Below, in pieces: positions 9,387 through 27,187 of a DNA stretch of 46,509 bases. This DNA comes from an uncultured Eubacteriales bacterium (GTDB taxonomy: Bacteria > Bacillota > Clostridia > Oscillospirales > Oscillospiraceae), in NCBI GenBank assembly GCA_900319935.1, contig ONQJ01000010.1, positions 1 through 46,509 on the forward strand, written 5' to 3'. The translations under genes were made by a program, and so were the position numbers. A model generated the notes under the pieces. The model was given only the letters and a program-made list of their open reading frames with translations. It was not told where the DNA came from and did no database searches. Position 1 is the stretch's first letter. Every line of letters begins with the position of its first letter.

Positions 9387-9397
9387 TCTGTTAATCG

Positions 9398-9436
9398 AAA
9401 AAAGCTCCCTGATGCAAAGCATCAGGGAGCTTTTTT
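9398..9436. terminator. Bidirectional terminator between murC and the surface operon
   Basis: Perfect 18-bp stem (9398-9415 with 9419-9436) with AAA loop; A-tract on one side and T-tract on the other let it stop murC on the plus strand and the CotH operon on the minus strand. Confidence 0.93.
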
Positions 9437-9444
9437 CATATTTC

Positions 9445-10839
9445 TCATTCAAAGGCCGACATCGTCGCGGCCAGCCACTGTCCTTCCTCACCGCGGAGGA
9501 AGACCATCTTGTAGCCGTCCTCTCTGGCATAGGAATCCTTTCCGTACCACTGCGTGGCGGTGAAGTCCGCCTTGTAGAGGATCGTACAGGTGAAGCACTT
9601 GTCGCCCACGCGGTGGAAGTTGCCGAAGCGCAGCTCCTTCTGATCCATCTCCGTGGCCGAGGCCCAGATCATGGCGTCGTAGGAGTGGGAAAAATAGCTG
9701 TCCAGCTCGGTGCCCGGCAGGATGCGGTCCCGCACGTTTTTGAGCGCGACGCCGTTGTATTTGTCGGAGGTGTAGAACAGATAATCCGCGAAGAAGCCTT
9801 CGGCCGCCTCGTGCATCGCGATTGAGATGTCGTCGTCGTCGGGATAGAAGTAGATGTATCTCCCGTCCCCGCCGATCACGGGCGTGAGCTCGACGCCGTT
9901 GTACGAAGCGCGGATCTGCGGTTCGATATACAGACCGTCCGTCTCGTAGAGCAGCGTGTCGTAGCCGCCCTCCGGCAGATAGTCGCTCAGGCCGCGGAAC
10001 ATGGTCTGTTCCCGGCTGCGGACCTGCTCCTCGCCCAGCTCCGCGCCGCAGGCGTAGACCTTGACGCCCTCCGGCGCTTCCACGCGGAAGGAATAGGTCG
10101 TCGTGGGCATGATCACATAGCGCAGCACGCCGTCCTCCGGCTCGCCCACGGGAGCGATCTCGTTCCCGTCGGGATCGCTCACCGCGATCTGGCCGTAGAG
10201 CGGGCCCACCTCGTAGCGAACCATGCGCGGCCCGGGCGCGTCAAAGCGCCGCTCGAGCTCGCTGAGCTGCGTGAGCGCGACCGCCGGATCGACGATCTTC
10301 TCCTGTCCCACGGCCGTGCCGTTGAGATAGGGCGTCACGCCGTCCGGGGCGTCGATCTGTACCGTGAGCGCCTGGAGGCTGTCCGAGAGCGTTTCGGAGG
10401 TGATGCTCTCGAGTTTCCACTCCTTGCGGCCGAAGCTGAATCGCTCGGCGGTCTCGTAAGGGAGCAGGCGGATCTCGCCGATCCGCGCGGCACCCGCGTA
10501 GAGCACGAACACGGTCTGCGTCTCGTCGCTGCGGGAGATGTCGCGGCGATAGCTGAGCTTGTTGCCCTTGACCGTGCTGTCGAAGTAGTCGTTGAAGAGG
10601 GCGCGCGCATCCTCATATTCGCTGACGCCGCCGGCGGTGGCCGCAAGCGTCTCGCGCCAGTCGTCCTCGCTCATCTCGGCCATCAGCGCGTCCATGGTCC
10701 GCTCGGGGCGGGTCTGCTCGTAAACGGCCGTGTACTTGTAAAAGACCACGCACACGAGGAAGCCCAGCAGAAGCAGCAGCATCGTCCAGAACAGCAGGAA
10801 CAGGCCCCAGCCGCGGCCTTTTTCTTTTCTCTCAGTCAT
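9445..10839 (-). CDS. Membrane-anchored extracellular protein of the CotH operon
   Basis: 464-residue protein with a basic N-terminus (MTERKEKGRGW), one strong transmembrane helix (residues ~14-35) and a large extracytoplasmic region, i.e. a type II anchored surface protein. The outer part has repeated beta-rich segments such as TVQIDAPDGVTPYLNGTAVG and FRVEAPEGVKVYACGAELG. Both read 'V.I/VEAPDGV..Y.NG/CG', suggesting two related small beta domains like TcaA/YcdA-type anchored proteins. The last ~100 residues have an NTF2-like look. Start is ATG 10839 with AGGAGG upstream, overlapping the previous gene's stop by 8 bp. Last gene of the operon. Function unknown; a scaffold or sensor role is a guess. 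Confidence 0.8.
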   Translation of the reverse strand: MTERKEKGRGWGLFLLFWTMLLLLLGFLVCVVFYKYTAVYEQTRPERTMDALMAEMSEDDWRETLAATAGGVSEYEDARALFNDYFDSTVKGNKLSYRRDISRSDETQTVFVLYAGAARIGEIRLLPYETAERFSFGRKEWKLESITSETLSDSLQALTVQIDAPDGVTPYLNGTAVGQEKIVDPAVALTQLSELERRFDAPGPRMVRYEVGPLYGQIAVSDPDGNEIAPVGEPEDGVLRYVIMPTTTYSFRVEAPEGVKVYACGAELGEEQVRSREQTMFRGLSDYLPEGGYDTLLYETDGLYIEPQIRASYNGVELTPVIGGDGRYIYFYPDDDDISIAMHEAAEGFFADYLFYTSDKYNGVALKNVRDRILPGTELDSYFSHSYDAMIWASATEMDQKELRFGNFHRVGDKCFTCTILYKADFTATQWYGKDSYAREDGYKMVFLRGEEGQWLAATMSAFE

Positions 10840-11841
10840 GGAGATCCTCCTCTCTGAGCACGATAAAGCCCGTGGGGATCCCGCGCGGTCCGGTGACGGA
10901 GGCGCAGTTGTTGATGATCTCGTCGCCGTAGACCATGACCGAGGACGAACCGCCGTCGAGGTTGCCGGCGTTGACCGCACCGTACTGCAGCATGATGTCC
11001 ACGACGTTCTCCAGCGTCGCGCCAAGGGTCTTGCTGCTTCTGCCGTCGAGCACGAGCAGCAGGATCGCGCCGTCCTCGCGCTGGCCGATGGCCGTGCGCG
11101 GGTTGACGCCGGGCCCGCAGTTCTGCGTCTGCACCTCGCCGTTGATGATCAGCGAGGAGGCGATGCCGTCGTGCGTGACGAAGCTGACGCCGTATTTCAT
11201 GCCGCGCTCGAGCGCCTCGCTCCCGGTCATGGTCCCGACGAGCAGCACGCCGTCCTTGTCGAGGCCGATGACGTTGTAGCGCGTGGAGGCCTCGCCGTAG
11301 AGGATCTCGCCCTCGGAAATGACCATGCCGGTCGGCGTGCCGCCGTTGCCCAGGCCGTTGTTGTCGATGAAGCCGCCGGCGTTGGTGCCGGCCAGGCCGT
11401 TGTATTTGGCCACCATCTCCGTGAGCTGCAGCCCCGGATCGACGCCGAAGCGGCCGGAGGTGCCGAGGATGACGCTCTTCGGCTCGCGGACGATCAGCAG
11501 CTTGCCGCGGCAGGTCCCGTAGGCGATGTCCACCAGCTCGAGATAGGGCGTCTCCGGGCCGCTCTCGCTCTGACGCGCCTCGGCGATATGGTGCTCTTCA
11601 GAAGGTAGGAGTCCAGCTCCTCTTCCGAAAGGAACAGGCCGGGGATCCAGCGCAGCGCACTGGTCTCGCGCAGAGAGTTGCACACCGCGCCCGTCATCGT
11701 GGGCGAGGGCCCTCTGAGCGCCACCCACACCACGCCGGCAAGCGTGAGGATCACGCACAGCAGCGTCAGGCCCAGAAAAGCCATCAGTCTGCCGAAAACG
11801 TGCTTTTTCTTTTTCGGTCTTCGCTTTTCGTTTTCAACCAT
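10832..11841 (-). pseudogene. Phosphodiester glycosidase (NAGPA-domain) protein with an internal frameshift
   Basis: Related to the N-acetylglucosamine-1-phosphodiester alpha-N-acetylglucosaminidase catalytic domain, which cleaves sugar phosphodiesters. The 5' part starts at ATG 11841 and encodes MVENEKRRPKKKKHVFGR, a transmembrane anchor and FLSEEELDSYLLKST. The catalytic part continues in another frame from about 11600 down to 10832, with ELVDIAYGTCRGKLLIV, NAGGFIDNNGLGNGG and NLDGGSSSVMVY. The two frames overlap at 11494-11758 and the natural junction is near 11585-11605; one missing base explains it. Everything else is intact, so this is a recent mutation, a consensus error, or (less likely) recoding. 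If real, the cell would make only an unanchored or truncated product. It follows the LRR gene by 6 bp. Confidence 0.85.
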
Positions 11842-11847
11842 GCTTGA

Positions 11848-13257
11848 TCAGTCTTCCTCTCCCGACGGTGAATTTGACAACATCAGCTGCCAATTGATCA
11901 GGTCGTAGCGCATCTGTTCGCGCAGCAGCGCGTAGCGCTCGGTGGGATTGCTCTTGTCTCCGTTCGTTTTGAAGCGCCAGCCGCCGGAGCTGTTCGGGTC
12001 TCCGCCGTAGTCGCTCACAAAGGTGTCGGGCAGCTGCTCTTTGAGCTCGTCCACCTGCGCCTGGGTGACGTGGGTAAAGGTCGAGCCGCAGATACGGACG
12101 ATCTTGAGCTGCTTGAGACCGTAGAGCGGCGTGAGATCCGTCAGATTCGGCAGGTTGGCGATGTTGAGGTATTCGAGCTTTTCCTTGTCCGCGAGCACGC
12201 TGATGTCGTCGATCGGCGTGCCGTGGCACTCGAAGAACTCCAGATCCGGGCAGTCCTCCAGCGGCGTGATGTCCCGGATATTCGTCAGCGTCAGGATGAC
12301 GACCTGCAGCTTGGGCCAGCTGCGGACAAATTCGATGTTCGACAGGCCCTTGTAGTGGCCGATGTCGAAGTACAGCACGTCCGGCATGTAACGCAGCAGG
12401 TACGCGTTGTCGTCCCGCAGCAGGATGCCCGCGTTGATGAGCGTCGTGTCGGTCATGAAGGTATAGCCCTCGATGGGAATGCTCCAGACGACGCGTTTTT
12501 CGGGAAAGTCGGCGCGCAGCGCGGCCATCTTGTCGTTGTCGGTGATGCCGCATTCCTCAAAGCGCAGCAGATCCAGCGCCCGCAGATAAGGCAGCGCCTC
12601 GCGGAAAAGATCGACGCCGTCGTCGCCGATGTCGGTCTTGTAGTATTTCAGCTTTTCGGTCGTCCAGTCGGCCGTCTGGCCGAAAAGCTCGAAGCGGCAG
12701 TTCAGCTCCGCCTCCGGCGCGGCGGCCGCGAGCGCGGAAAGGCTGTCGAAGGACAGGCTCGTCACGCCGTCCTCCGGCGCAAGCTCCAGCGTTCTGACTT
12801 CCGGCAGCACGGCCAGTGCGGAGACGATCTGCGGCACGTCCTCGTCCGCCGCGGCGCGCAGGTCCAGGCTGTCGGCGCGGCAGTCGATCTCCTCGCCGAG
12901 CAGCTCCGCCTTCCAGCTGACGACTGCCTGCGGGAACGCCGTCTCCACCGCGCGCAGCTGCGCGAGCGTCGCTCCGGTCACGCCCAGCGAGATCTCCTTC
13001 ACGTTCTCAAGCCGGTCGGAAACGCTCATGAGTTCCTCGATCGAAGCGCCGGTTTCTTGCAGATCGACGCTCCCGGTATCCGGCGTGAGCGTGAGCGAGC
13101 CAAGCTGAAATTCACGGGGCGGCTCCTCCTCCGGGACGTTCTGCTCCGGGGGCGGCGTCTCCTGTGCTTCGGCGGGCTGCGCCGCGCCGCCGCAGCCGAC
13201 GAGCAGCAGCGCCAGAAGCAGCGCGGCAACAAGCAGCATGGTTTTTTTGAAAGACAC
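11848..13257 (-). CDS. Leucine-rich-repeat lipoprotein
   Basis: 469-residue surface lipoprotein. The GTG start at 13257 has AGGAGGT at ideal distance. The signal peptide ends in the lipobox LLVGC (Cys22), followed by a Pro/Glu-rich linker. The body contains irregular leucine-rich repeats in two blocks, e.g. VRTLELAPEDGVTSLSFDSLSAL, LEFFECHGTPIDDISVLADKEKLEYLNIANLPNLTDLTPLYGLKQLKIVRI. Such repeats generally bind proteins or glycans. A Trp- and Tyr-containing C-terminal tail (SDYGGDPNSSGGWRFKTNGD) ends the protein. Fourth gene of the CotH operon, 5 bp after the small membrane protein. Ligand unknown. Confidence 0.88.
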   Translation of the reverse strand: MSFKKTMLLVAALLLALLLVGCGGAAQPAEAQETPPPEQNVPEEEPPREFQLGSLTLTPDTGSVDLQETGASIEELMSVSDRLENVKEISLGVTGATLAQLRAVETAFPQAVVSWKAELLGEEIDCRADSLDLRAAADEDVPQIVSALAVLPEVRTLELAPEDGVTSLSFDSLSALAAAAPEAELNCRFELFGQTADWTTEKLKYYKTDIGDDGVDLFREALPYLRALDLLRFEECGITDNDKMAALRADFPEKRVVWSIPIEGYTFMTDTTLINAGILLRDDNAYLLRYMPDVLYFDIGHYKGLSNIEFVRSWPKLQVVILTLTNIRDITPLEDCPDLEFFECHGTPIDDISVLADKEKLEYLNIANLPNLTDLTPLYGLKQLKIVRICGSTFTHVTQAQVDELKEQLPDTFVSDYGGDPNSSGGWRFKTNGDKSNPTERYALLREQMRYDLINWQLMLSNSPSGEED

Positions 13258-13262
13258 GGCCC

Positions 13263-13454
13263 TTACCTCCTCCTTTGATGGACGATCAGGATCAGCGATT
13301 CGACGATCACCAGAACGAGAAAGATCGCGAAGGGGATCTTGAAAACGTCGCGCGAGAGAAAATGCATGGCCTCGTTGAAGCGGTCGAGCACAAAGAGGAC
13401 CAGGAAGACGACCGCGGTGTCCAGGCAGATATGGGGCAGCAGCCTTTTGAACAT
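13263..13454 (-). CDS. Small two-helix membrane protein
   Basis: 63 residues with two hydrophobic segments (about 8-24 and 40-58) joined by a short loop (DRFNEAMHFLSRDVFKIP) and ending in a basic HQRRR. It starts at ATG 13454, with GGAGGG upstream that overlaps the end of the preceding gene, and ends 5 bp before the LRR start, so it is clearly part of the operon and probably translated. No family recognised; it could be an assembly or anchoring partner for the surface proteins. Confidence 0.75.
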   Translation of the reverse strand: MFKRLLPHICLDTAVVFLVLFVLDRFNEAMHFLSRDVFKIPFAIFLVLVIVESLILIVHQRRR

Positions 13455-13457
13455 ATC

Positions 13458-14531
13458 TCAGCCCTCCCCCGTCCCGGCGGTCTCGGGCAGGAAGTCCGCG
13501 ACATAGATGATATCGGGGATGCTGCGGTCGTAACGGAAGCTGACCAGCTCGCCCATCCATGCCAGGCCGACGCTCTGTCCGCCGTCGAGATTGTAAGCGC
13601 TCTTGCAGCCGAGGGACTCGAAAAGATTGGCCAGCTCATACATTTTCATGCCGCGGGAGCCGGAATAATAGCCGGTGCGGGTACCCTCGACCTCGACGAG
13701 ATAATAGTGTCCCGGCTCGACGTAGCCGATGGCCGCGCGGGGATTGTTGGGCAGCACGATGCTGTTGAAGCTCGTGAGCGCATGGCCCTCGTCGTCAAGA
13801 AGCTCCGGGCCGAAGGCCCAGACCTGCCAGGGCGCGGCCGCCTTGAGATCGTCCATGTCCAGTTCCGCATTCGTCAGCGTGACCATCGTGCCGTCGGAGA
13901 GCAGGACGCACACATCCTGGAAGCGTGTCTCGCGGTAGAGCACGCCGTTGCGGACGACAAGCCCCTCGCCCCGCCCGGCGTAGTGATCGCCGGAGAGGGC
14001 GACGACCGCGTTCTCCTGCCGGGCGATCTCGTCGATCATCTGAAAACCGCCGTTGTATTTGCCGTTGGCAAAGCCGGAGCGGAGATAGCCCAGATCGCTG
14101 ACGTAGACGTCGGCGACGAAGTAAATGACGTCGTTCTCCTCGATGCGCTGATAGCTGACGTTCACATTTGCGCTTTGATAGCTGTTTTCGGTCTGAATGA
14201 CCTCGCCGTCGGTGAACTTGTCGGCGAACTTTTCTCCCCATCTGCCGGAATAGACGCGCACGGGCTCCGGCGTTTCTTCCGGAGGCGTCTCCTCCGGTTC
14301 CTCAACGGGGACCGCGGTCGGCTCCGGCGTGGGCTGCGGCGCGAGCGTGACGAGCACGACGGGTTCGCTTTCCTCGCCTCTGAGGATGCCGTAATGCGGC
14401 AGCACGTGGTGGAACAGCGCGAAAACGAGCAGTCCCGCGGCGATCGCAAGAAGGTCCAGCGCGATCGTCGCGCCGACGCTCATGCGCTTTTTCTTTTTAA
14501 CATGCGCGGCTTTTTGTTTTTCTTCCTTCAT
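13458..14531 (-). CDS. Phosphodiester glycosidase (NAGPA-domain) protein, membrane anchored
   Basis: 357-residue surface enzyme: basic cytoplasmic start (MKEEKQKAAHVKKKKRM), one transmembrane helix (~18-42), a Pro/Glu-rich spacer (~60-90), and a NAGPA-type catalytic domain (~120-350). Family features are VSYQRIEENDVIYFVADVYV, VALSGDHYAGRGEGLVVRNG, PRAAIGYVEPGHYYLVEVEG and the conserved NLDGGQS near residues 314-320. The family cleaves phosphodiester-linked sugars; bacterial members are linked to cell-wall or exopolysaccharide turnover. It is 6 bp downstream of the CotH gene and is a distinct paralog of the second NAGPA gene in the same operon. The true substrate is not shown by the sequence. 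Confidence 0.88.
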   Translation of the reverse strand: MKEEKQKAAHVKKKKRMSVGATIALDLLAIAAGLLVFALFHHVLPHYGILRGEESEPVVLVTLAPQPTPEPTAVPVEEPEETPPEETPEPVRVYSGRWGEKFADKFTDGEVIQTENSYQSANVNVSYQRIEENDVIYFVADVYVSDLGYLRSGFANGKYNGGFQMIDEIARQENAVVALSGDHYAGRGEGLVVRNGVLYRETRFQDVCVLLSDGTMVTLTNAELDMDDLKAAAPWQVWAFGPELLDDEGHALTSFNSIVLPNNPRAAIGYVEPGHYYLVEVEGTRTGYYSGSRGMKMYELANLFESLGCKSAYNLDGGQSVGLAWMGELVSFRYDRSIPDIIYVADFLPETAGTGEG

Positions 14532-14537
14532 GTTCTG

Positions 14538-16988
14538 TTATCCTCTCGGCGGGAAAAGCTCCGCCATCGTTGCGTCGTCCGCCTCGGAGTAGGCCTGGAT
14601 AAAGACCTGGAACCTGTCGTCGCGATACTGTCCCATCATGTCGCGCTGCCACGCGACGTTGTTCTCGTACAGCGCCTTGCTCTCGCCCCAGCGGCTGAGA
14701 TTGCGGTCCATTTCCGGGGCGAGCTCCGCGACCATGCGGTCGAAGATCTCGACGAGCAGTTCGTGACGAAGGCCGTTCTGATACATGCCGGCCGCGGTCT
14801 CCAGAAAGATCCGGCGGAAGTTTTCGTTCTTGAGCAGGTTGCACAGCAGATTGCCGACCTGCGAGGGTTTGTGGCCCATGCCGAGCGCCTCGAAGATCGA
14901 CGCGTCCTGATTCATCAGGCCCTGGTCGAGGTCGAAGAACATCGTGCGCCATTTGTTGTCCGGCCGGTTGCCGATCGCATAGCGGATGTTGCCCGTCGGG
15001 TCATAATTGTTGAAATAGGTCTCCAGGCAGGTCCATTGGGCGAAGTTGACCAGATCAAGCCGGTCGGCGACGTAGTTGTAATTGTCCGGATCGGTCATGT
15101 CCTTGTAGGTGGCGAACATGAACAGATCATACAGCTCCGGCTGGTACTTGGACTTGACGGGCGCACGGCTGATCGACACCAGATCCTCGTCCGAGCCGGT
15201 GTGGCTCGCGACATACTTCTTTGAGTAAGCCTCACGCAGGGTGTAGATGCCCCAGTAGTTCCCGTTGACGTACAGGATGCAGAAGCGCGAATCGAGCGTA
15301 AAGGGCTCCGTCACCGCCACGCGCTCGGCCACCTCGGCCGCAAGCGGTTCGCGGTAGGTGAGCATGCCCACGGAATCGCCGCCGCGCAGATTGAGCGAGT
15401 GGAATTCCGTGATGCCCTGTCCGAAGAGGTCGAAATGGACGTCGCCGCCGTAGCGGTCGCGGAACACGATCTTGAAGCTCTTCTTGTCCCATACGCTGCG
15501 GGAGGCGGCGCCGTGCAGCGTGATCATGCAGTCGGAGGCGAAGCTCCCCTCCGGCCCGTAATACTCCGCGTGGGAGTCGTATTCCATGTTCCCGTTGTGG
15601 TTGTACAGGATGTCCAGCTTGCGCGGATCGAGCGTCACGCAGACGACGGGCAACGTGTGCCTTTCTCCGAGCAGATAAGTATAGGCGGCGGCCTCGCTCG
15701 TCAGCTTGCCGTCCGCGACGGCGATCGCGCGGATCTGCGTCGTGCCGCCGAGATGGATCGGCCCGTCGTACACAGCCGAGCCGGTCGTCGGATCGGAGCC
15801 GTCGGTCGTATAGTAGATCGTGCCCTCGGCGGAGAGCTCGACGTCCAGAGAGCTCAGATCGTCGTAAATGCCGGGAGGCGTCACGCTGACCGGACGCTCG
15901 GTGATATAGCGCGCCCCGTCGCGGTTGGCCTCGTCGGGCGTCCGCCTCGCGAAGAGGAAGAAGCCGCTCTTTCCGTCGATCCTGCCCTTGCTGTGGTTGA
16001 GCGGGACGCCGTAGAGGCTGATATAATCCGAGAGCGTCCCGTCGGCGCGGAAAACGTAAAAGCCCTCGCCCGCGGCGTTGAGCTTGAAGTGCGTGTGGCA
16101 GACGGCCGTATCAAACTGCGCGTCGCCGCAGTAGATCACATAGATCGCGCCCGGGGCGAGCGTGTCGGAAGGCAGCCGGAAGCGGGTCGGGTCCTCGGGA
16201 TCGTCGCTGACGTAATAGTCGCTGAGCGTGATCGTCTCATTCGAGACGTTTTTCAGCTCCACCCAGTCGTAATAGCCCGCCGCGTGGAAGTTGTAGTCGT
16301 CGTTGTAGGTGACGGCCTCGTTGACCACGAGCGCGCCGTGGCGGTCGTTTTCCGCGGCGAAGGCCTCATAGCCCTCCGGCGTGTTGGGAAAGCCCGGCGT
16401 GGGGTAGCGCGTGGAGCGCGGCTCCTCGCCCTCGAAGCAGATCGAGCAGTCGGCCGCGCAGCTCTCGTAGGACTGTTCCCAGAGCAATTCTCCCCGCGGG
16501 GAAGAGAAGAAGACCGCGTCTCCGTCGCCGGAGAGCTTGAAGTTCGTATGCAGCCCGTCCTCGGCCCGATCCTTCTTCGAGCAGAAGATCACCGCGTAAG
16601 CGCCGCCTTCGATCGTCAGCGAGGGGATCTGCCATTTGCAGGGCTCGTTCTCGTCGTCCGAGAGCCAGCAGCCGCTGATATCGCTCGGCTCCGCGTCGGG
16701 ATTGTACAGCTCGATCCAGTCGACGAAGTCGCCGTCGGCGTCCGGCACGGTGGCCTTGTTGGAGGCCTGCAGCTCGCTGAGGACGATCCCGGTACGGAAG
16801 GGCTCGGGCGTCGGCTCGGGCGTCGGCTCGGGCGTCGGCGCCGCGGCCGTCTCCTCAGGCGGCGCGCTCTCCTCCGCAGGCGCGGAGGCGGGAGCGGGGG
16901 CCCCGCAGGCCGAGAGCAGCATGGCGCACAGCAGCAGACAGGCTGTGAGCGTCCTTGACATTTTATGGCGAACAAGCAGTTTGAACAC
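14538..16988 (-). CDS. CotH-kinase-family surface lipoprotein with lamin-tail domains (copy 1)
   Basis: 816-residue exported lipoprotein. The GTG start 16988 is supported by AAAGGAG eight bases upstream. Signal peptide with lipobox LLSAC (Cys28), then a PTPEPTPEPTPEP spacer. Domains in order: two lamin-tail-like beta domains (~65-190 and ~215-345, with FVDWIELYNPD and YDWVELKNVSNE), a chitobiase/hexosaminidase C-terminal-like domain (GTIYYTTDGSDPTTGSAVY), and a CotH domain (~455-790) with LHGAASRSVWDKKSFKIVF, FCILYVNGNYWGIYTLREA and MFFDLDQGL. Bacillus subtilis CotH is an atypical protein kinase; the sequence here keeps the general motif order, so extracellular kinase activity is plausible but unproven. 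First gene of a six-gene surface operon. Confidence 0.9.
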   Translation of the reverse strand: MFKLLVRHKMSRTLTACLLLCAMLLSACGAPAPASAPAEESAPPEETAAAPTPEPTPEPTPEPFRTGIVLSELQASNKATVPDADGDFVDWIELYNPDAEPSDISGCWLSDDENEPCKWQIPSLTIEGGAYAVIFCSKKDRAEDGLHTNFKLSGDGDAVFFSSPRGELLWEQSYESCAADCSICFEGEEPRSTRYPTPGFPNTPEGYEAFAAENDRHGALVVNEAVTYNDDYNFHAAGYYDWVELKNVSNETITLSDYYVSDDPEDPTRFRLPSDTLAPGAIYVIYCGDAQFDTAVCHTHFKLNAAGEGFYVFRADGTLSDYISLYGVPLNHSKGRIDGKSGFFLFARRTPDEANRDGARYITERPVSVTPPGIYDDLSSLDVELSAEGTIYYTTDGSDPTTGSAVYDGPIHLGGTTQIRAIAVADGKLTSEAAAYTYLLGERHTLPVVCVTLDPRKLDILYNHNGNMEYDSHAEYYGPEGSFASDCMITLHGAASRSVWDKKSFKIVFRDRYGGDVHFDLFGQGITEFHSLNLRGGDSVGMLTYREPLAAEVAERVAVTEPFTLDSRFCILYVNGNYWGIYTLREAYSKKYVASHTGSDEDLVSISRAPVKSKYQPELYDLFMFATYKDMTDPDNYNYVADRLDLVNFAQWTCLETYFNNYDPTGNIRYAIGNRPDNKWRTMFFDLDQGLMNQDASIFEALGMGHKPSQVGNLLCNLLKNENFRRIFLETAAGMYQNGLRHELLVEIFDRMVAELAPEMDRNLSRWGESKALYENNVAWQRDMMGQYRDDRFQVFIQAYSEADDATMAELFPPRG
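16801..16836 (-). repeat. Three 12-bp tandem repeats in the CotH linker
   Basis: Unit ggctcgggcgtc three times in a row, encoding Pro-Glu-Pro-Thr repeats between the lipobox and the first lamin-tail domain. Such repeats vary in copy number by slippage and would alter linker length without shifting the frame. Confidence 0.85.
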
Positions 16989-17041: not shown

Positions 17042-17070
17042 AGTTTACCATTTTCGCCCTGTGGTGTCAA
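17042..17070 (-). promoter_or_regulatory. Promoter of the CotH surface operon
   Basis: On the minus strand TTGACA (17065-17070), 17-bp spacer, TAAACT (17042-17047); transcription would begin about 50 nt before the GTG start. Confidence 0.75.
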
Positions 17071-20151: not shown

Positions 20152-22629
20152 ATGCCCATGAAACCCATCTGCCGAAAGCTGATCGCGATCGTTTTGTTTC
20201 TGACCATGCTTCTGCCGCTGGCCGCCTGCAGCTTCAGCGGCGGCGAGACCGCGCAGACGCCGGCCGCGCAGAGCCCTGACGCGGTCGTCCCGGCGGAAAC
20301 GGCCGCGCCGACCGCGGAGCCCACGCCATACGAGGTCCCGGCCGATCTGCCGCTGCGGATCAGCGAGGTCATGCCCTCGAACAAGGCGACGCTGGCCGCG
20401 GGCAGCCTTTTCCCCGACTGGGTGGAGCTGCACAACGCCGGAGAAGAGCCTGTTTCGCTCAGGAACGTCTTTCTCTGCTGCGGGACGGACAGCTTCGAGC
20501 TGGGCGAGGGCGAGCTGGCCGCCGACGCGTACATGATCGTATTCTGCGACGACAGCGGTCTGAGCGGCCACGCTCCCTTCTCGATCGCGAAGGAGGGCGA
20601 GAGCCTTGCGCTGCGTACCGACCGCGGCCTGGTCCTCGACGAATTCGAGCTTCCCGCCTGCGAGGCCGACCGCAGCGCCTGCCGTGCGGAGGACGGCGGC
20701 ATTTTCGTCACTTCCATGGCCACGCCCGGCTGCGCCAACACGCCGGAGGGCTTTTCGCAGTATCTCTCCGGGCAGAGCTGTGATTCTCCGCTGCAGATCA
20801 GCGAGGTCATGGTCTTCAAGCAGTTCGGCAACAGTCCCAAGGGCGTCGGCAGCGACTGGGTGGAGCTGAAAAACGTCAGCGGCGGCGACGTGCAGCTGTC
20901 GGAGTACTATCTCTCCGACAGCGCCAAGGACCGTCTGGCCTACCGTCTGCCCGAACAGGTCCTTTCAAGCGGAGAGTACGTGCTGATCTACTGCGACGGC
21001 TCCGCGGACGGCGGCGTATACGCTCCCTTCCGGCTGGATTCCCAGCGCGAGCACCTCTATCTCAGCCGCGCGGACGAGACGCTTGCCGATTATGTGCTGC
21101 TGGAAAGGATCCCCTACGGTTACAGCTACGGCCGTCCGGAGGGCGAGGGCGGCTTCCGCTACATCGCCTCCCCCACGCCCGGCTCCGCCAACGGCGACGG
21201 TGCGCTCCGCGTCTCCGACAAGCCCGTGCTGCTGAGCAGCGAGGGCGTGTTCAACGATGTGGAATCCGTCGAGGTCGTGCTCGGCGCGCAGGGCGAGATC
21301 CACTACACCACCGACGGCTCCGCGCCGACGGAGAGTTCCCCCGTCTACACCGCTCCGCTGAGCGTCAGCTCCACCTCGGTGCTGCGCGCGATCAGCGTCG
21401 AGCCCGGCTGCCTTGCGAGCGAGGCGCTGAACCTGAGCTACATCATCAACGAGCACCACACGCTCCCCGTCGTGAGCGTGATGACCGATCCCGCCAACAT
21501 TTATCCGCTCGGCGGCATGTACAACGACGTCGACAACGTCTACGAGGTCCCCGGCGCGATCGAATACTTCGGTGAGGACGGCAGCTTTTCCATCGCATGC
21601 GGACTTAAGCTGCACGGAGACGTCTCCAAGCGGGTATCCGGGAAGCGGACGCTCAAGGTCTGCTTCCGCGCGGCCTATGAGGGCAACCTGCACTACGATC
21701 TCTTCGGCAACGGCGTGACCGAGTTCGATTCGATCCTGCTGCGCCACCCGGCGGAGGACTCGATGTCGACCTATCTGCGCGACATTCTGATCCACGACAT
21801 GGCCAAGCAGTGCTTCCCCGCGCTGCCCTGTCTGGACTACAAGTTCTGCATCCTGTACATCGACGGCGACTACTGGGGCATCTACGGCATCCGCGAGGCG
21901 CACTCGGCGACCCACTACGCCATGCACTACGGCTACGATCCCGACACGGTCTCGAGCTGGCAGCGCCTGTGGGACCGCAACACCGTCGTCGGCGAGGCCT
22001 GCGAGTTCGCGCTCAGCAACAATCTCGTCGACCAGGATAACTTTGACCGCGTCGCGGAGCATCTCGACATGGACAGTCTGATCGGCTGGACCATCCTGCA
22101 GGCCTGGTGCGCCAACTACGACTGCAACCCCTCCAACGTGCGCTATTATTACTCCAGCACGGACAATGTGATGCACTTCGCGCTGTCCGATCTGGATCTG
22201 GGCATGTTCACCCACGATCTCTTCGACGTGCCGCTCTACGGCTCGGTCAACGACGGCGTGCGCAACAACTATGACTTCAACGTCCTCGCGCGCAAGGCCT
22301 TTGCCAACCGCGGCTATCAGCTGCGCATGGCGCAGCAGCTCTCCGACGCCCTGCACGGGGCGATGTCCGACGAGAACGTGGTCGCCATGATCGAGGGTTA
22401 CCGCGAAACGCTCTCTCCGGAGGTCCGGCGCGACATGGCCCGCTGGTACGGCGGCATGTCAGAGGACGACGCGGTGAATTCCTGGAACATCCTGGTCGAC
22501 AGGATGTGCAGCTACGTCACCTGGGGGCAGGGCCGCGCGCGGCAGGTGATCGATTCCTTCATCGCCCATACCAGCCCGCGCTTCACGCAGGAAGAGGTCG
22601 CGTACTACTTCGGGGATCTGATGAACTGA
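20152..22629 (+). CDS. CotH-kinase-family surface lipoprotein with lamin-tail domains (copy 2)
   Basis: 825-residue exported lipoprotein with the same layout as the CotH gene at 14538-16988. The signal peptide has lipobox LAAC (Cys26); then a PAETAAPTAEPTPYEVP linker, two lamin-tail-like domains (FPDWVELHNAGEEP, SDWVELKNVSGGDV), a chitobiase-C-like domain (GEIHYTTDGSAPTESSPVY) and a CotH domain with LHGDVSKRVSGKRTLKVCF, FCILYIDGDYWGIYGIREA and SDLDLGMF. AAAGGAG nine bases upstream fixes ATG 20152. It is monocistronic, on the opposite strand from copy 1, with no NAGPA partner. Kinase activity is inferred from the family only. Confidence 0.9.
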   Translation: MPMKPICRKLIAIVLFLTMLLPLAACSFSGGETAQTPAAQSPDAVVPAETAAPTAEPTPYEVPADLPLRISEVMPSNKATLAAGSLFPDWVELHNAGEEPVSLRNVFLCCGTDSFELGEGELAADAYMIVFCDDSGLSGHAPFSIAKEGESLALRTDRGLVLDEFELPACEADRSACRAEDGGIFVTSMATPGCANTPEGFSQYLSGQSCDSPLQISEVMVFKQFGNSPKGVGSDWVELKNVSGGDVQLSEYYLSDSAKDRLAYRLPEQVLSSGEYVLIYCDGSADGGVYAPFRLDSQREHLYLSRADETLADYVLLERIPYGYSYGRPEGEGGFRYIASPTPGSANGDGALRVSDKPVLLSSEGVFNDVESVEVVLGAQGEIHYTTDGSAPTESSPVYTAPLSVSSTSVLRAISVEPGCLASEALNLSYIINEHHTLPVVSVMTDPANIYPLGGMYNDVDNVYEVPGAIEYFGEDGSFSIACGLKLHGDVSKRVSGKRTLKVCFRAAYEGNLHYDLFGNGVTEFDSILLRHPAEDSMSTYLRDILIHDMAKQCFPALPCLDYKFCILYIDGDYWGIYGIREAHSATHYAMHYGYDPDTVSSWQRLWDRNTVVGEACEFALSNNLVDQDNFDRVAEHLDMDSLIGWTILQAWCANYDCNPSNVRYYYSSTDNVMHFALSDLDLGMFTHDLFDVPLYGSVNDGVRNNYDFNVLARKAFANRGYQLRMAQQLSDALHGAMSDENVVAMIEGYRETLSPEVRRDMARWYGGMSEDDAVNSWNILVDRMCSYVTWGQGRARQVIDSFIAHTSPRFTQEEVAYYFGDLMN

Positions 22630-22685: not shown

Positions 22686-23939
22686 TCATTTCACGATCAC
22701 GGAGATGCCGTTGGGGATGAAGCAGAGGCTCTTCTTTCCCATCGCGCGGGCCATGTCCAGCGCGTCGGACAGCGCGGGAGCGTAGCGCATCTTCATCTCC
22801 TCGACCATGCCTTTGAGTTCCGGCCGCGTGACGAAGACGACCGTGTGGTGCATCAGGATGCGCGCGAGGATCTGGCTCTCCCACTGGTCGGGCACGGTGC
22901 GGTCCTGCGGCGTGGCCATCTGCTCGGCATAGAGCGCGGCGGGGCTCTCGCAGTCGCGCAGCGCGTGATAAAAGCCCTCGCCGCCGTGGCCGTCGGCGCA
23001 TTCGGCGCACAGCACGATCACGCCGTCCTCGACGCAGCTGGCCTCCGCGGCCGTCATGCTCTTGACGCACTGGTAAAGGTTCTGATCCAGCGGCGCGCCG
23101 CCGTTGGAGGTCACGACGATCTCGGAGGGCACGGGCGCGACCTTGAAGTAGTCGAGCATGTAGTCGCAGCCGCGGCGATGCGCCGTGCGGAAGTTGCCCG
23201 CGAAAGCGGCCACGGTCTTTTTCTCCTCGTCGATGACGACGTTGACGATGAAGGCCAGCTTCGCCATCTCCGCCGCGGCGAGCATGTCCTCGTGGATCGG
23301 GTTGCCGTCCAGGACGCCCGTCCGGGCGAAGGGGCTGTCGATAAAACGCGAGCAATGGTTGCCCAGCACCGTCACCTGGTCGGCCACGCCGGGCAGCACG
23401 CTCTTGCGGCCGCCGGAGAAGCCGGCGAAGAAGTGCGGCTCGATGAAGCCCTCGGCCACGAGCAGCTCGGTCTCGACGGCCAGACGGTCGATCACGCAGG
23501 GCGCGCCGGAGGGCAGCGTTCCGATCTCGATGTTGGAGCTTCCGTCGCGGCAGTCGTGCACGACGACGCGGCAGCTCTCCATGATCTCTTTTCCGAGCTT
23601 GTCCTCCAGCTCTTTCATGCTCGTCGGGCGGTGGAAGCCCGTGGCGACGAGCAGCGTGACCTCGATATCCGGACTCCCCGCGCGCAGCTCCTCGAGCATG
23701 GGGGGCAGGATATCGCGGCTCGGCACCGGACGGGTGTGGTCCGAGACGATGACGACGCAGTTCTTTTTGCCGCGCGCGAGCTCGCGCAGCCGCGGGCTGT
23801 CGATGGGCTCCGCCATTGCCGCGCGCACGATCTCAACGCCGCTGCCCGCGGCCTTGAGCTCCCCGATGCGGGAAGTCAGGACGGGAGCGCCGCCCTCGTC
23901 GTATTCGATAAAGCTCTTTCCGTATGGGATGCGGATCAT
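22686..23939 (-). CDS. larA: Nickel-pincer lactate racemase
   Basis: Racemase interconverting D- and L-lactate with a nickel-pincer (NPN) cofactor. The 417-residue protein keeps the residues reported for Lactiplantibacillus plantarum LarA at a constant offset of five: Arg70 (R75), His103 (H108), His169 (H174), Lys179 that carries the cofactor (K184), His195 (H200), Gln290 and Lys293 (Q295, K298) and Trp353 (W358). Signatures are VSDHTRPVP, EPHFFAGFSGGRKSVLPG and LDQNLYQCVKSMTAAE. LarA-fold enzymes can act on other 2-hydroxy acids, but the lactate operon context favours lactate. It abuts etfA directly. The cofactor genes larB, larC and larE are not in the window. Confidence 0.93.
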   Translation of the reverse strand: MIRIPYGKSFIEYDEGGAPVLTSRIGELKAAGSGVEIVRAAMAEPIDSPRLRELARGKKNCVVIVSDHTRPVPSRDILPPMLEELRAGSPDIEVTLLVATGFHRPTSMKELEDKLGKEIMESCRVVVHDCRDGSSNIEIGTLPSGAPCVIDRLAVETELLVAEGFIEPHFFAGFSGGRKSVLPGVADQVTVLGNHCSRFIDSPFARTGVLDGNPIHEDMLAAAEMAKLAFIVNVVIDEEKKTVAAFAGNFRTAHRRGCDYMLDYFKVAPVPSEIVVTSNGGAPLDQNLYQCVKSMTAAEASCVEDGVIVLCAECADGHGGEGFYHALRDCESPAALYAEQMATPQDRTVPDQWESQILARILMHHTVVFVTRPELKGMVEEMKMRYAPALSDALDMARAMGKKSLCFIPNGISVIVK

Positions 23940-24941
23940 TTACGCTCTTCCTTTCAGCTGTGCGATCATCGCGTCGCAGACCTCGTCCATATCGCCGACG
24001 ATGCCGTAGCTGCAGTAGCCGAAGATTGCGGCCTCCGGATCGCGGTTGACGGCGACGATCACGTCCGAGTCGGTGATGCCGGTGACGTGGTTGACCGCGC
24101 CGGACACGCCGAAGGCGATGTAGACCTTCGGTTTGACGACGACGCCGGACTGGCCGATGACCAGCTTGTAGGGCAGCACGCCGCGGTCGAAGACCGGGCG
24201 GGTGCAGCCGAGCTTGCCGCCGAGCAGGGCGGCGAGCTCGCGGTAGCGCCCCAGCGCGTCCGCGCCCTTGAGACCGTTGCCGACGCAGACGATGTATTCC
24301 GCGTCCGCGATGTTCAGGCTCTCGTCCTCCTCGTCGGGCAGGAAATCCAGGACCTTCGTACGGATCTTCTCAACCGGGAAGTCGATCCGCTCCTCGATCA
24401 GCTCGCAGGGACGCGGTCCGGCGGGCTGGTACTTGAAGGTGCCGGGCCGGATCGTGCCGACCTGCGGGCGCACGAAGGGCACGGTGATGACGGCCATCAT
24501 CTTGCCGCCGACGGCGGGCTCGATGAACTCGATATCGCCCGTTTTCGGGTCGTAGACGAGCTGCGTCGCGTCCGAGGTGCAGCCGGTGGGCAGGCGGCAG
24601 GCGAAGCGCGGCGCGAAGTCGCGTCCGTCGATCGTGCCGCCGACGAGCACCGCCGAGGGCTTGTATTTGCGGCAGAGCCGGGTGAACAGTTCGGTGTAGG
24701 CGTCGACGGAGAAGCGCTCGTAGCCCGTGCCGGAAACGCGGATGAGCTTTTCCACGCCGCAGTCCATGACCTTTTCGATCTCGCTGCGGTGCAGCTCGCC
24801 CACGATCACGGCGCAGAGCTTTTCGCCCGCCGCGTCGCAGAGCTTTCTTGCCTCGCAGCAGAGCTCGAGTGAGACGGGCAGGACCTTGCCGCCGTCGTGC
24901 TCGATGTAGACCCACATGTCTTTGTAATCGGTTTTATTCAT
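23940..24941 (-). CDS. etfA: Electron transfer flavoprotein alpha subunit (lactate operon)
   Basis: 333-residue EtfA/LctC-type subunit carrying FAD. The C-terminal FAD-binding signature is intact: VIGQSGVVVKPKVYIAFGVSGAVNHVTGI followed by VNRDPEAAIFGYCSYGIVGD. The N-terminal domain begins with MNKTDYKDMWVYIEHDGGK. Unlike the Acetobacterium woodii LctC there is no N-terminal ferredoxin-like Cys cluster, so any ferredoxin would dock as a separate protein. Start at ATG 24941 because AGGAGG is 8 bp upstream; a GTG three codons earlier overlaps that site. Lies between etfB and larA with gaps of 13 and 0 bp. Confidence 0.95.
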   Translation of the reverse strand: MNKTDYKDMWVYIEHDGGKVLPVSLELCCEARKLCDAAGEKLCAVIVGELHRSEIEKVMDCGVEKLIRVSGTGYERFSVDAYTELFTRLCRKYKPSAVLVGGTIDGRDFAPRFACRLPTGCTSDATQLVYDPKTGDIEFIEPAVGGKMMAVITVPFVRPQVGTIRPGTFKYQPAGPRPCELIEERIDFPVEKIRTKVLDFLPDEEDESLNIADAEYIVCVGNGLKGADALGRYRELAALLGGKLGCTRPVFDRGVLPYKLVIGQSGVVVKPKVYIAFGVSGAVNHVTGITDSDVIVAVNRDPEAAIFGYCSYGIVGDMDEVCDAMIAQLKGRA

Positions 24942-24954
24942 CCCGCTCACCTCC

Positions 24955-25749
24955 TCACAGCCTGTCCGCGATCAGCGCGAAGAGCTTTTCGGCGTCCTTC
25001 GCCGCGCTGCCCTCGCGGATCATCTCGCCGCCGGGGCCCTTCTCGGGCGGATAGGTGCGCGGCACCTTCGTCGGCGAGCCGGGGTCGCCGATCTGCGCGC
25101 GGTCGAGCCCGGGGATGGTGTCGGACGTGTACTTTTCGATCTCCGCCGTGCGCGAGGCCTTCCAGCTTTTGAGGTTGGGGATGCGCGGACGGTAGTTCGT
25201 CTTTTCGACGGTCATCAGACAGGGAAGCTGTGCCTGCGCCGTCTCGATCCCGCCCGCGAGCTCGCGCTCGGCGGTGACGGTCCTTTCTTTTTCGTCGACC
25301 TCCAGCACCGTGCGCACGGAGCTGAGCTGGCTGGCGTCGAAGCGCTCGGCAAGCTGGCTGGCCATCTGGCCTGTCGCGCCGTCGAGAGATTCCTTGCCGC
25401 AGAAGATGAGATCGTATTCGCCCAGCAGCTTCGCCGCCGTGACGATCACGTAGCTGGTCGCCAGGGTGTCGGCGTTGGCAAAGGCGCGGTCGGACAGCAG
25501 CACAGCGCGGTCGGCCCCGGCGGCGAGACACTCGCGCAGGGCCTCGGCGGCCTGGTCGGGCCCCATCGTGATCACGGTCACGGCGCCGCCGTATTTTTCC
25601 TTCGTGCGGACGGCGGCCTCGAGAGCGTTGCCGTCCAACGGGTTCAAGATCGCGGGCACGCCCGCGCGGATCAGGCTGCCGGTCACCGGGTCGATCTTGA
25701 CGAGGTTGACGTCCGGCACCTGCTTGACGCACACAAGGATCTTAAGCAT
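24955..25749 (-). CDS. etfB: Electron transfer flavoprotein beta subunit (lactate operon)
   Basis: 264-residue EtfB/LctB-type subunit, partner of the EtfA encoded next. It starts MLKILVCVKQVPDVN at ATG 25749 with AGGAGG upstream; the open frame extends further but those codons lie inside lctD. Motifs: AILNPLDGNALEAAVRTKEKYGG, GADRAVLLSDRAFANADTLATSYV, FCGKESLDGATGQMASQLAERF (family nucleotide-binding loop) and LPCLMTVEKTNYRPRIPNLKSW. In bifurcating Etf complexes this subunit binds the bifurcating FAD. It overlaps the end of lctD by 8 bp, consistent with stoichiometric synthesis of the complex. Confidence 0.95.
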   Translation of the reverse strand: MLKILVCVKQVPDVNLVKIDPVTGSLIRAGVPAILNPLDGNALEAAVRTKEKYGGAVTVITMGPDQAAEALRECLAAGADRAVLLSDRAFANADTLATSYVIVTAAKLLGEYDLIFCGKESLDGATGQMASQLAERFDASQLSSVRTVLEVDEKERTVTAERELAGGIETAQAQLPCLMTVEKTNYRPRIPNLKSWKASRTAEIEKYTSDTIPGLDRAQIGDPGSPTKVPRTYPPEKGPGGEMIREGSAAKDAEKLFALIADRL

Positions 25750-27187
25750 CGAGCGCACCTCCTTCCCAGTCGTGGCAGACCTTGCCGGGGTTGAGGATGC
25801 CCTTCGGGTCAAAGACCTGCTTGATCGCGCCCATCAATCCGTAGGCCGTATCGCCCACGGACTCGCGCAGATATTCCTTCTTCGCGTGGCCGATCGAATG
25901 CTCGCCGGAGACCTGGCCTTCGAATTCGGTGCACTTGGCGTAGCAGGCGTCCATCAGCTTCTTGACGCGGCGCTTGAACTCGTCCTCCTCCAGATCGTTG
26001 GAGCAGCAGTAGATGTGCAGGTTGCCGTCGCCCGCGTGGCCGAAGGAGCGGACGTACACGCCCTGGCGCTCGGCTTCGTCGTGGGTGTAGACGAGGAATT
26101 CCGCGATGCGGTCGACCGGGACGACGACGTCCATCTCGTCGAGCAGCTTCGTCTCGGCCTCGATGACCGTGAGGAAGGCGCTGCGCGCAGCCCAGACGTC
26201 CTTTTTTAGTCCGTCCGTCCATACGACCAGCGTGTCGTAGGCGCCCGCTTTCTCGGCCACCTCGCCGAGACGGTCCATCTTGGCGGTGAGCTCGGCCTCG
26301 CCCTCGCCGACGAGCGTGACGAGGATATAGGCTCCGGCTTCCCTGCCGTTCACCACCGTGGGAAACACGGCGTTGCCGGTAAAGGCGGCGGAGGAGTCGA
26401 CGATGTCGCGCTCCATGAATTCGATCGACTGGGGATCGAGATTGGCCAGCTTGATCGCCGGAACGGAGGCGATCGCCGTGGCGATATCCCGGAAGGGCAG
26501 GATCAGGCTCACGTCCATGCGCGGCTTGGGCACGAGCTTCAGCGTCAGCTCCGTGATGACGCCCAGCGTGCCCTCCGAGCCGATCATCAGATGAAGCAAG
26601 CTGTAACCGGAGCTGGTCTTGCACACGGTCTTGCCCAGCTTCATGATCCGCCCGTCCGGCAGCACGACGGTCATCGCCAGGACGTAGTCGCGCGTGACGC
26701 CGTATTTGACGGCGCGCATGCCGCCGGCGTTGGTCGAAACGTTGCCTCCCACCGTGGCGGTCTTCTCGCCCGGGTCGGGCGGATACATCAGCCCGTGGGC
26801 AAGCGCGTCGGCCGCCAGGTCGCAGAGCCGTACGCCCGGCTGGGTGTGGACGACGAGATTGTTCATGTCATAAGACAGGATCCGGTTCATCCGCATCGTG
26901 CTGAGCACGACGCCGCCCGCGACCGGCACGCAGCCGCCGACGAGACCGGTGCCCGCGCCGCGCACCGTGACGGGGACGTTCTCCTCGTGGCAGATCTTCA
27001 GGATCGCGGAGACCTCCTCGGTGCTCTCGGCAAGGCAGACCGCCTCGGGCAGATAGCGCCCGTAGATCGGCATTTCATCGTGGGAATACTCCTCCCGCAC
27101 CGCGTCGCCGTACTGGAAGCGGCCCTCGCCGACGACGGCGCGCAGCTTCTCCGCGGCGGCGGGCGAGAGACGATTGTATGAGGCCAT
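25742..27187 (-). CDS. lctD: FAD-binding lactate dehydrogenase (LctD/GlcD family)
   Basis: 481-residue flavoprotein oxidising 2-hydroxy acids. The N-terminal PCMH-type FAD domain has PVTVRGAGTGLVGGCVPVAGGVVLS, YPPDPGEKTATVGGNVSTNAGGMRAVKYGVTRD and HLMIGSEGTLGVITE; the C-terminal domain has FGHAGDGNLHIY and GQVSGEHSIGHAKKEYL. Followed by etfB-etfA-larA, it matches the gene set of the A. woodii lactate dehydrogenase/Etf complex, which oxidises lactate with NAD+ by confurcating electrons from reduced ferredoxin. Glycolate or another 2-hydroxy acid is a possible alternative substrate, but larA in the operon favours lactate. Start ATG 27187 has AAGGAGG upstream. Confidence 0.92.
   Translation of the reverse strand: MASYNRLSPAAAEKLRAVVGEGRFQYGDAVREEYSHDEMPIYGRYLPEAVCLAESTEEVSAILKICHEENVPVTVRGAGTGLVGGCVPVAGGVVLSTMRMNRILSYDMNNLVVHTQPGVRLCDLAADALAHGLMYPPDPGEKTATVGGNVSTNAGGMRAVKYGVTRDYVLAMTVVLPDGRIMKLGKTVCKTSSGYSLLHLMIGSEGTLGVITELTLKLVPKPRMDVSLILPFRDIATAIASVPAIKLANLDPQSIEFMERDIVDSSAAFTGNAVFPTVVNGREAGAYILVTLVGEGEAELTAKMDRLGEVAEKAGAYDTLVVWTDGLKKDVWAARSAFLTVIEAETKLLDEMDVVVPVDRIAEFLVYTHDEAERQGVYVRSFGHAGDGNLHIYCCSNDLEEDEFKRRVKKLMDACYAKCTEFEGQVSGEHSIGHAKKEYLRESVGDTAYGLMGAIKQVFDPKGILNPGKVCHDWEGGALDA

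What the first reader, a model, noticed from the sequence alone, without database searches (positions are those of the whole stretch)
9445..16988. Six-gene surface operon: CotH kinase-fold lipoprotein, two phosphodiester glycosidases, LRR lipoprotein and two membrane proteins
Six minus-strand genes are packed with gaps of 3-6 bp or an overlap behind one consensus promoter. Every product is exported or membrane bound. A CotH-type protein (atypical protein kinase family) together with two different NAGPA-domain enzymes (family that cleaves sugar phosphodiesters) suggests an extracellular system that adds and trims phosphate-linked groups on a surface polymer or protein. The LRR lipoprotein and anchored beta-domain protein could be binding parts. 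I know of no named system with this composition.
Basis: partly seen in the sequence, partly recalled or inferred. Interest (0 to 1): 0.8.

Follow-up and report, generated by a model that had tools for sequence, protein, structure and literature searches.

The report
Conserved surface operon: kinase plus phosphodiesterases
A gut bacterium of ruminants and its relatives keep together six genes for cell-surface proteins (a kinase-like lipoprotein, two enzymes of a family that cuts sugar-phosphate links, each beside its own membrane partner gene, and a leucine-rich lipoprotein), a grouping for which no description was found and whose target on the cell surface is still unknown.

Summary
Six minus-strand genes at 9445-16988 are packed with gaps of 3-6 bp or an 8-bp overlap. 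The promoter's two hexamers are identical in the window and the 9 relatives checked. The fifth gene, the second NAGPA enzyme, is frameshifted here: 40 bp present in 9 of 9 compared relatives are missing; deletion and assembly error cannot be separated.

The grouping is not chance. Of 32 loci found through the last gene only, 12 have all six genes in order, 3 lack only the LRR gene, and 32 have NAGPA2 just upstream of beta. The operon is made of two recurrent pairs: NAGPA1 plus a small two-helix membrane protein (34 of 38 listed p63-like places), and NAGPA2 plus an anchored protein with a predicted NTF2-like fold (56 of 63 places). CotH lies within 8 kb of 20 of 58 NAGPA1 places against roughly 1.2 expected, in several gene orders. 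CotH motifs and fold fit CotH kinases.

Best reading: a membrane-tethered machine editing sugar-1-phosphodiesters of a wall polymer or glycoprotein. Substrate and CotH activity are inferred only.

The parts
17042..17070 (-). promoter TTGACA-N17-TAAACT with extended -10 (TG)
   Evidence: both hexamers identical in window and the 9 relatives checked
14538..16988 (-). CotH1: lipoprotein, 816 aa, LTD (two stretches), CHB_HEX_C_1, CotH kinase domain (residues 490-781)
   Evidence: Pfam; lipobox; N-x-D and D-x-D motifs; 5jd9 and 5jda rank 1 and 3 in PDB although the model is poor
13458..14531 (-). NAGPA1: N-terminal hydrophobic helix, phosphodiester glycosidase domain, 357 aa
   Evidence: PDB profile matches 6u11, 3ohg, 6pku
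13263..13454 (-). p63: 63-aa membrane protein, probably two helices; partner gene of NAGPA1
   Evidence: 34 of 38 p63-like places directly downstream of NAGPA1-type genes
11848..13257 (-). LRR lipoprotein, 469 aa, GTG start
   Evidence: LRR_4; lipobox; orthologue alignment
10832..11841 (-). NAGPA2: N-terminal hydrophobic helix plus NAGPA domain, frameshifted (frames 11494-11841 and 10832-11758)
11590..11593 (-). place where 40 bp present in 9 of 9 compared relatives are missing (placed to within a few bases)
9445..10839 (-). beta protein, 464 aa: TM helix and extracellular domains of NTF2-like type; partner gene of NAGPA2
   Evidence: model mean pLDDT 86.9, Foldseek, NAGPA2 upstream in 32 of 32 loci
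9397..9437 (.). hairpin terminator (19 pairs), T run on both strands
20152..22629 (+). second CotH lipoprotein, not in the operon; possible functional neighbour
   Evidence: a CotH domain also lies about 8 kb from the operon in G005

Best explanation
The operon encodes a membrane-tethered, cell-surface machine that edits sugar-1-phosphodiester links. Shown by comparative data: two separate modules, NAGPA1 with its own small membrane protein and NAGPA2 with its own anchored NTF2-like protein, recur together at many loci and are combined here with a CotH lipoprotein and an LRR lipoprotein under one conserved promoter with housekeeping-type hexamers. Inferred: each NAGPA enzyme forms a complex with its partner at the outer face of the membrane and hydrolyses the glycosyl-phosphate bond of a phosphodiester-linked sugar on a wall glycopolymer or glycoprotein, leaving a phosphate on the acceptor; CotH phosphorylates a surface acceptor, creating or renewing such phosphate groups; the LRR lipoprotein docks the substrate. 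The substrate I consider most likely is an alpha-GlcNAc-1-P-6-sugar link such as the murein linkage unit of secondary wall polymers, which has the same chemistry as the known NAGPA substrate GlcNAc-1-P-6-mannose.
For: Gene order and co-occurrence. CotH within 8 kb of 20 of 58 NAGPA1 places (rough random expectation 1.2; 10 of the 20 lie in operon orthologues of nine genomes and so are not independent), in several arrangements: operon order, NAGPA1-p63-CotH (L137), CotH-CotH-NAGPA1-p63-LRR (L109), divergent pairs (L104, L108, L134, L136). Promoter footprint in 10 of 10. Kinase motifs and fold of CotH. NAGPA profiles match mammalian uncovering enzyme and DUF2233 structures. LCP ligases, which make the wall phosphodiester link, are matched in 34 of 37 genomes including this one (link chemistry from passages of PMC7831098). 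[quoted passage not shown]
Against: No substrate, activity or physical interaction was tested. CotH would need a phosphate donor outside the membrane, where ATP is scarce (general knowledge). NAGPA2 is frameshifted in this very genome. The complete operon was found in a minority of the genus (8 of 61 genomes). The one LCP gene found in this genome is on another contig. Outside the genus the NAGPA1-p63 pairs examined had no CotH match in the DNA held, some of it only 5-8 kb (L098, L127-L132), so CotH is not obligatory for them. A first distance count, CotH against the highest-scoring NAGPA places (mostly NAGPA2 type), gave only 10 of 134 within 5 kb.
Confidence: 0.42

Rival explanations
1. Lipid-carrier recycling: the NAGPA-p63 module acts in the membrane on polyprenyl-phosphate sugars, releasing the sugar and free carrier phosphate; the wall is affected only indirectly.
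For: Both enzymes carry an N-terminal hydrophobic helix and NAGPA1 is paired with a small membrane protein in 34 of 38 places; a polyprenyl-phosphate sugar is itself a sugar-1-phosphodiester (general knowledge).
Against: The LTD, LRR and NTF2-like parts point to large extracellular substrates. In NAGPA1 some 130 residues lie between helix and catalytic domain, which argues for reach away from the membrane. None of the six genes is a known lipid-carrier gene.
Confidence: 0.2
2. Polyphosphate-linked system: CotH acts with VTC polyphosphate polymerase, using or modifying polyphosphate at the surface, and the NAGPA pair only shares the operon.
For: VTC is in 60 of 61 genomes of the genus, this one included; 30 of 134 CotH places used have VTC within 3 kb on the same strand.
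Against: CotH places near VTC and near NAGPA1 are nearly separate sets (30 and 21 of 134, 2 in both); none of the nine operon contigs checked has a listed VTC match, though several of these contigs are short.
Confidence: 0.12
3. Spore coat system: CotH phosphorylates coat proteins as in Bacillus subtilis.
For: Same kinase family; the Spo0A C-terminal domain is found in this genome and in 48 of 61.
Against: The protein looks like a lipoprotein with surface domains, its partners are exported or anchored, and the conserved promoter has housekeeping-type hexamers rather than a late sporulation one (sigma assignment from general knowledge).
Confidence: 0.07
4. Competition or conflict system: exported enzymes and diversifying LRR lipoproteins act on neighbouring cells.
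For: LRR lipoproteins are expanded, some in tandem arrays; NAGPA domains occur with prok-TelC in proteins proposed to act in conflicts (PMC12419801 passage).
Against: All six products appear anchored; no toxin or secretion family turned up among the 20 window proteins scanned with Pfam, though no defence library was run; the orthologous operon sits at the same place beside murC in five genomes (window, L042, L043, L044, L046).
Confidence: 0.1

Closest known systems
Bacillus CotH spore-coat kinases (Pfam PF08757; PDB 5jd9, 5jda)
   Same: Same domain family above cut-off, aspartate pattern with spacing 23, ranks 1 and 3 among structural matches of the model.
   Different: Lipoprotein with LTD and CHB_HEX_C domains, in an operon of exported or anchored proteins, housekeeping-type promoter.
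Mammalian uncovering enzyme NAGPA and bacterial DUF2233 proteins (PF09992; PDB 6pku, 3ohg)
   Same: Both window enzymes match the family and these structures by profile.
   Different: Anchored by an N-terminal helix and each beside a dedicated membrane partner gene.
CotH-VTC gene neighbourhood (polyphosphate polymerase)
   Same: CotH proteins beside a phosphate-polymer enzyme; present elsewhere in the same genus. That this neighbourhood is known from other Clostridia is recalled.
   Different: The operon's CotH has NAGPA pairs and no VTC.
ShfP-type surface phosphoesterases (PMC11488536)
   Same: Surface phosphoesterases fused to LTD, Ig and other adhesion domains; some are further fused to NAGPA (passages).
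   Different: Calcineurin-like enzyme, not a kinase; domain fusions rather than an operon.
NAGPA plus prok-TelC proteins (PMC12419801)
   Same: NAGPA joined to a second enzyme in proteins of spore-forming Bacillota (passage).
   Different: Single large proteins with a lipocone enzyme; the passage names no CotH and no small membrane partner.

Membership tests
CotH kinase family | Pfam CotH domain above the curated cut-off | tested here: met
   117.6 bits against 23.8
CotH kinase family | Catalytic and metal-binding aspartates (D228, D251 in B. subtilis) | tested here: met
   Invariant N-x-D and D-x-D in 12 aligned domains, spacing 23 in the window protein; that D228 and D251 changes inactivate CotH is from PMC7821199 passages, their roles are recalled; no residue-level alignment to a Bacillus CotH was possible
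CotH kinase family | Protein kinase-like CotH fold | tested here: inconclusive
   5jd9 and 5jda rank 1 and 3 in Foldseek (TM by target 0.52 and 0.59), but mean pLDDT is 59.9; sequence searches of PDB found no CotH
CotH kinase family | ATP-dependent phosphotransfer to protein | not testable with these tools
   needs assay
NAGPA phosphodiester glycosidases | Pfam NAGPA domain above cut-off in both genes | tested here: met
   77.9 and 117.3 bits against 25
NAGPA phosphodiester glycosidases | Conserved core motifs (R-x-A/S-x-G, D/E-G, NLDGG) | tested here: met
   alignments with 6u11, 3ohg, 6pku, 6pki, 6pkg; NAGPA1 of the window has E for D in the second; which residues are catalytic was not checked in a source
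NAGPA phosphodiester glycosidases | Intact reading frame of NAGPA2 in this genome | tested here: not met
   40 bp missing relative to 9 of 9 compared relatives, frame changes
TcaA-type wall proteins (beta protein) | Pfam TcaA NTF2-like domain | tested here: not met
   no TcaA match in 11 beta proteins at E 1 and no PF22819 match in the window's genome; likeness of domain order is recalled only
CotH-VTC polyphosphate cluster | VTC gene beside CotH | tested here: not met
   no listed VTC match on the contigs of nine operon orthologues, window's included
NTF2-like superfamily (beta protein) | NTF2-like fold | tested here: met
   model mean pLDDT 86.9; leading Foldseek matches include structures titled NTF2 or NTF2-like (RsgI9 S1C-NTF2, TraM, a conjugation protein) and ARC6/PARC6 domains (their fold class recalled), E about 2e-4 to 6e-3, one domain aligned

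The most novel reading that the evidence does not exclude
An undescribed phosphoglycan-editing machine of Clostridia: NAGPA enzymes with dedicated membrane partners cut the alpha-GlcNAc-1-phosphate link that LCP ligases make between wall polymers and peptidoglycan, while an extracellular CotH kinase with a non-ATP donor re-phosphorylates the site, so that polymer attachment becomes reversible.
Probability: 0.12. Interest if true: 0.88.

Novelty: new variant of a known kind. Interest (0 to 1): 0.6.

Why it matters
Two enzyme families whose role outside the cell is unclear in these bacteria (CotH-type kinases and NAGPA glycosidases) are tied together here by conserved gene order, and each NAGPA type is tied to a membrane partner gene that matched no family in Pfam or NCBIfam at E 0.01. 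This gives concrete pairs to co-purify and a specific substrate class to assay. If NAGPA enzymes release wall polymers, it would answer how Gram-positive cells could undo the phosphodiester attachment of glycopolymers.

Tried and rejected
Programmed frameshifting in NAGPA2: rejected, because the relatives have one frame and 40 more bases at that place. TcaA membership of the beta protein: no support. Matching CotH to solved structures by sequence: no CotH found; only the fold search found it. Promoter scan alone: not above chance, decided by the footprint. LCP next to NAGPA: one instance about 3.4 kb apart noticed in G012:C24 by comparing by eye; not pursued. p63 in the class at large: 10 of 293 genomes match, the window's included; three of the ten only weakly and without NAGPA beside.

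Literature: 10 searches of the openly licensed PMC library only; 'CotH' with 'phosphodiester glycosidase' 0 papers, 'CotH' with 'NAGPA' 0 papers. Two key primary papers (PMC3675612, PMC4922149) are not held. Of the five papers cited I saw passages only (PMC12419801, PMC12024695, PMC7821199, PMC11488536, PMC7831098).

Rows dropped before counts. One search used 63 of the 68 beta rows listed (five second matches of genes already listed dropped) against the 150 NAGPA rows that one search listed before its cut. Seven of 63 had no listed NAGPA directly upstream: four are second members of tandem beta-like genes, one (G000:C59:369) has a NAGPA fragment just upstream at the contig end, one (G010:C204) lies at a contig end, one (G001:C55:17190) is unexplained. 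Searches used 134 CotH places (second fragments of one domain and two short lone fragments left out; the tool's list was itself cut); NAGPA1 58 of 80 rows listed (22 weaker rows left out). The 8-kb limit was chosen by me after the 5-kb count with another NAGPA list. The expectation of 1.2 assumes 2.4-Mb genomes and random placement. p63: 34 of 38 places listed = 7 operon copies, 20 annotated, 7 by coordinates; the other four are weak (E 1.2e-4 or worse).
Full report
What is there. Six genes lie on the minus strand between 16988 and 9445: CotH lipoprotein, NAGPA1, a 63-aa membrane protein (p63), an LRR lipoprotein, NAGPA2 and an anchored protein called beta here. Gaps are 6, 3, 5 and 6 bp, then an 8-bp overlap. 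Each start has a purine-rich stretch before it. A promoter TTGACA-17-TAAACT with TG before the second hexamer ends 53 bp upstream of the cotH start. Both hexamers are unchanged upstream of cotH in the 9 relatives checked, while much of the flanks has drifted. A hairpin terminator follows beta.

A correction. NAGPA2 changes frame near 11591. Aligned with nine relatives whose gene is open, the window lacks 40 bp there, including the stretch coding a motif (NTSLI) that is conserved in the other copies aligned. The rest of the domain is well kept: 62-80 % identical to the relatives compared, 72-80 % to the five closest operons. This is either a recent lesion or an assembly error; the data cannot say. 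Intact copies exist in relatives.

The window's genome (1.94 Mb, 150 contigs) is unnamed. Relatives found by name are uncultured Oscillospiraceae, Ruminococcaceae and Clostridiales assemblies and two labelled Lachnospiraceae, many with ruminant gut sites in their titles.

Conservation of the whole. A search of named genomes with the beta alignment returned 32 loci. Twelve have CotH, NAGPA1, p63, LRR, NAGPA2, beta in this order (L062, L064-L070, L074, L076, L088, L092; L062, L065 and L070 with an extra NAGPA1 copy), three lack only LRR (L071-L073), and all 32 have NAGPA2 just upstream of beta. Several of these are the same assemblies as G-numbered genomes, so the sets are not independent. In 61 genomes of the genus, eight have the full set (window, G005, G009, G017, G025 split over two contigs, G031, G034, G350) and G363 lacks LRR; the 24 genomes beyond the first 37 were judged through their NAGPA1 matches only. 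In the window, L042, L043, L044 and L046 the operon lies beside murC and the tRNA nucleotidyltransferase gene; in L045 and L048 it lies elsewhere.

Two modules inside it. p63-like genes were sought in 60 genomes. Of 38 places, 34 follow a NAGPA1-type gene directly; in the 20 that were annotated outside the operon the gap is -73 to +9 bp. Two of these are in other families of the order (L098, L105). In 293 genomes of the class the pair is rare: ten genomes match, the window's included. Of the seven strong places in six other genomes, six have NAGPA1 directly upstream and one starts at a contig end; three weak matches have none. Beta-like proteins, many matching only in the first half, follow a NAGPA gene by 20-152 bp between matched segments in 56 of 63 places; two tandem copies of the NAGPA2-beta pair, the first cut by the contig end, are in this genome at C59 (L110). 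In the 60 genomes searched beta had matches in the window's genus only (1 of 24 genera). The beta model is good (mean pLDDT 86.9): one TM helix, an alpha-beta region, beta strands and a C-terminal alpha-beta region, with NTF2-like domains as leading structural matches.

CotH belongs to the picture. CotH lies within 8 kb of 20 of 58 NAGPA1-type places where about 1.2 would be expected at random. Ten of these places lie in operon orthologues. The other ten show different arrangements: NAGPA1-p63-CotH in L137, CotH-CotH-NAGPA1-p63-LRR in L109, divergent NAGPA1 and CotH in L104, L108, L134 and L136, and looser linkage of 5.5-6.3 kb in four more. An earlier count with a 5-kb limit and a list made mostly of NAGPA2-type places gave 10 of 134 CotH places. 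Other CotH copies of the genus sit beside VTC polyphosphate polymerase genes: 30 of 134, against 21 near NAGPA1 and only 2 near both. So the genus seems to have two kinds of CotH neighbourhood.

Are the enzymes plausible? CotH domains from 12 proteins share N-x-D-x(3-4)-N and D-x-D motifs; the first aspartates of both are 23 residues apart in the window protein, as are D228 and D251, whose change inactivates B. subtilis CotH (PMC7821199 passages). The CotH1 model is poor (59.9) but its best structural match is B. cereus CotH. NAGPA1 and NAGPA2 match the mammalian uncovering enzyme and DUF2233 structures in the core motifs, with E for D in one motif of NAGPA1.

How it may work. NAGPA, the uncovering enzyme, takes GlcNAc off GlcNAc-P-mannose. 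Wall polymers of Gram-positive bacteria are frequently tied to the C6-OH of muramic acid by a phosphodiester whose other side is, in the conventional unit, alpha-GlcNAc. The two links have the same chemistry, and LCP ligases that make the wall link are matched in 34 of 37 genomes here. I therefore propose that the anchored NAGPA modules trim such links, with CotH supplying or renewing phosphate on an acceptor and the LRR lipoprotein binding it. The co-occurrence is shown; complexes, substrate and CotH's donor are inferred.

Against this: nothing was assayed; extracellular ATP is scarce; the window's own NAGPA2 is interrupted; the full operon was found in a minority of the genus; and the NAGPA1-p63 pairs outside the genus that were examined have no CotH match in the DNA held. 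Rival readings (lipid-carrier recycling, polyphosphate, spore coat, conflict) are listed with their tests.

Novelty. Within the openly licensed PMC library no paper holds CotH together with phosphodiester glycosidase or NAGPA. The parts are known families; the combination and the two partner pairs appear undescribed within that limit. I call it a new variant of a known kind and score it 0.6.

Noticed in passing
L056 5517-11922, L057 5299-11330, L058 5020-11187: Tandem arrays of four LRR lipoprotein genes in congeneric genomes; each of the 37 genomes of the genus searched has 3 to 13 matches to the family.
   Followed up: partly
L110 2-3652 (G000:C59): Two head-to-tail NAGPA2-beta pairs in the window's own genome, the first cut by the contig end, both diverged from the operon's pair.
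   Followed up: partly
window 20152-22629: Second CotH lipoprotein 3.2 kb upstream of the operon on the other strand; a third at G000:C81 (L060).
   Followed up: partly
genus-wide, 134 CotH places: CotH genes fall into nearly separate neighbourhoods, with VTC (30) or with NAGPA1 (21), both in only 2.
   Followed up: partly
window 27421-32947: An MMPL-family protein followed by a 1025-aa GLUG-motif protein on the plus strand.
   Followed up: no
window 22686-27187: Nickel-dependent lactate racemase (LarA), an electron transfer flavoprotein subunit, a protein without a family match and an FAD-linked oxidase in a row on the minus strand.
   Followed up: no
L042 7650-8636, L062, L070: An extra NAGPA1 copy follows p63 in three operons (L042 is the same place as L065).
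   Followed up: no
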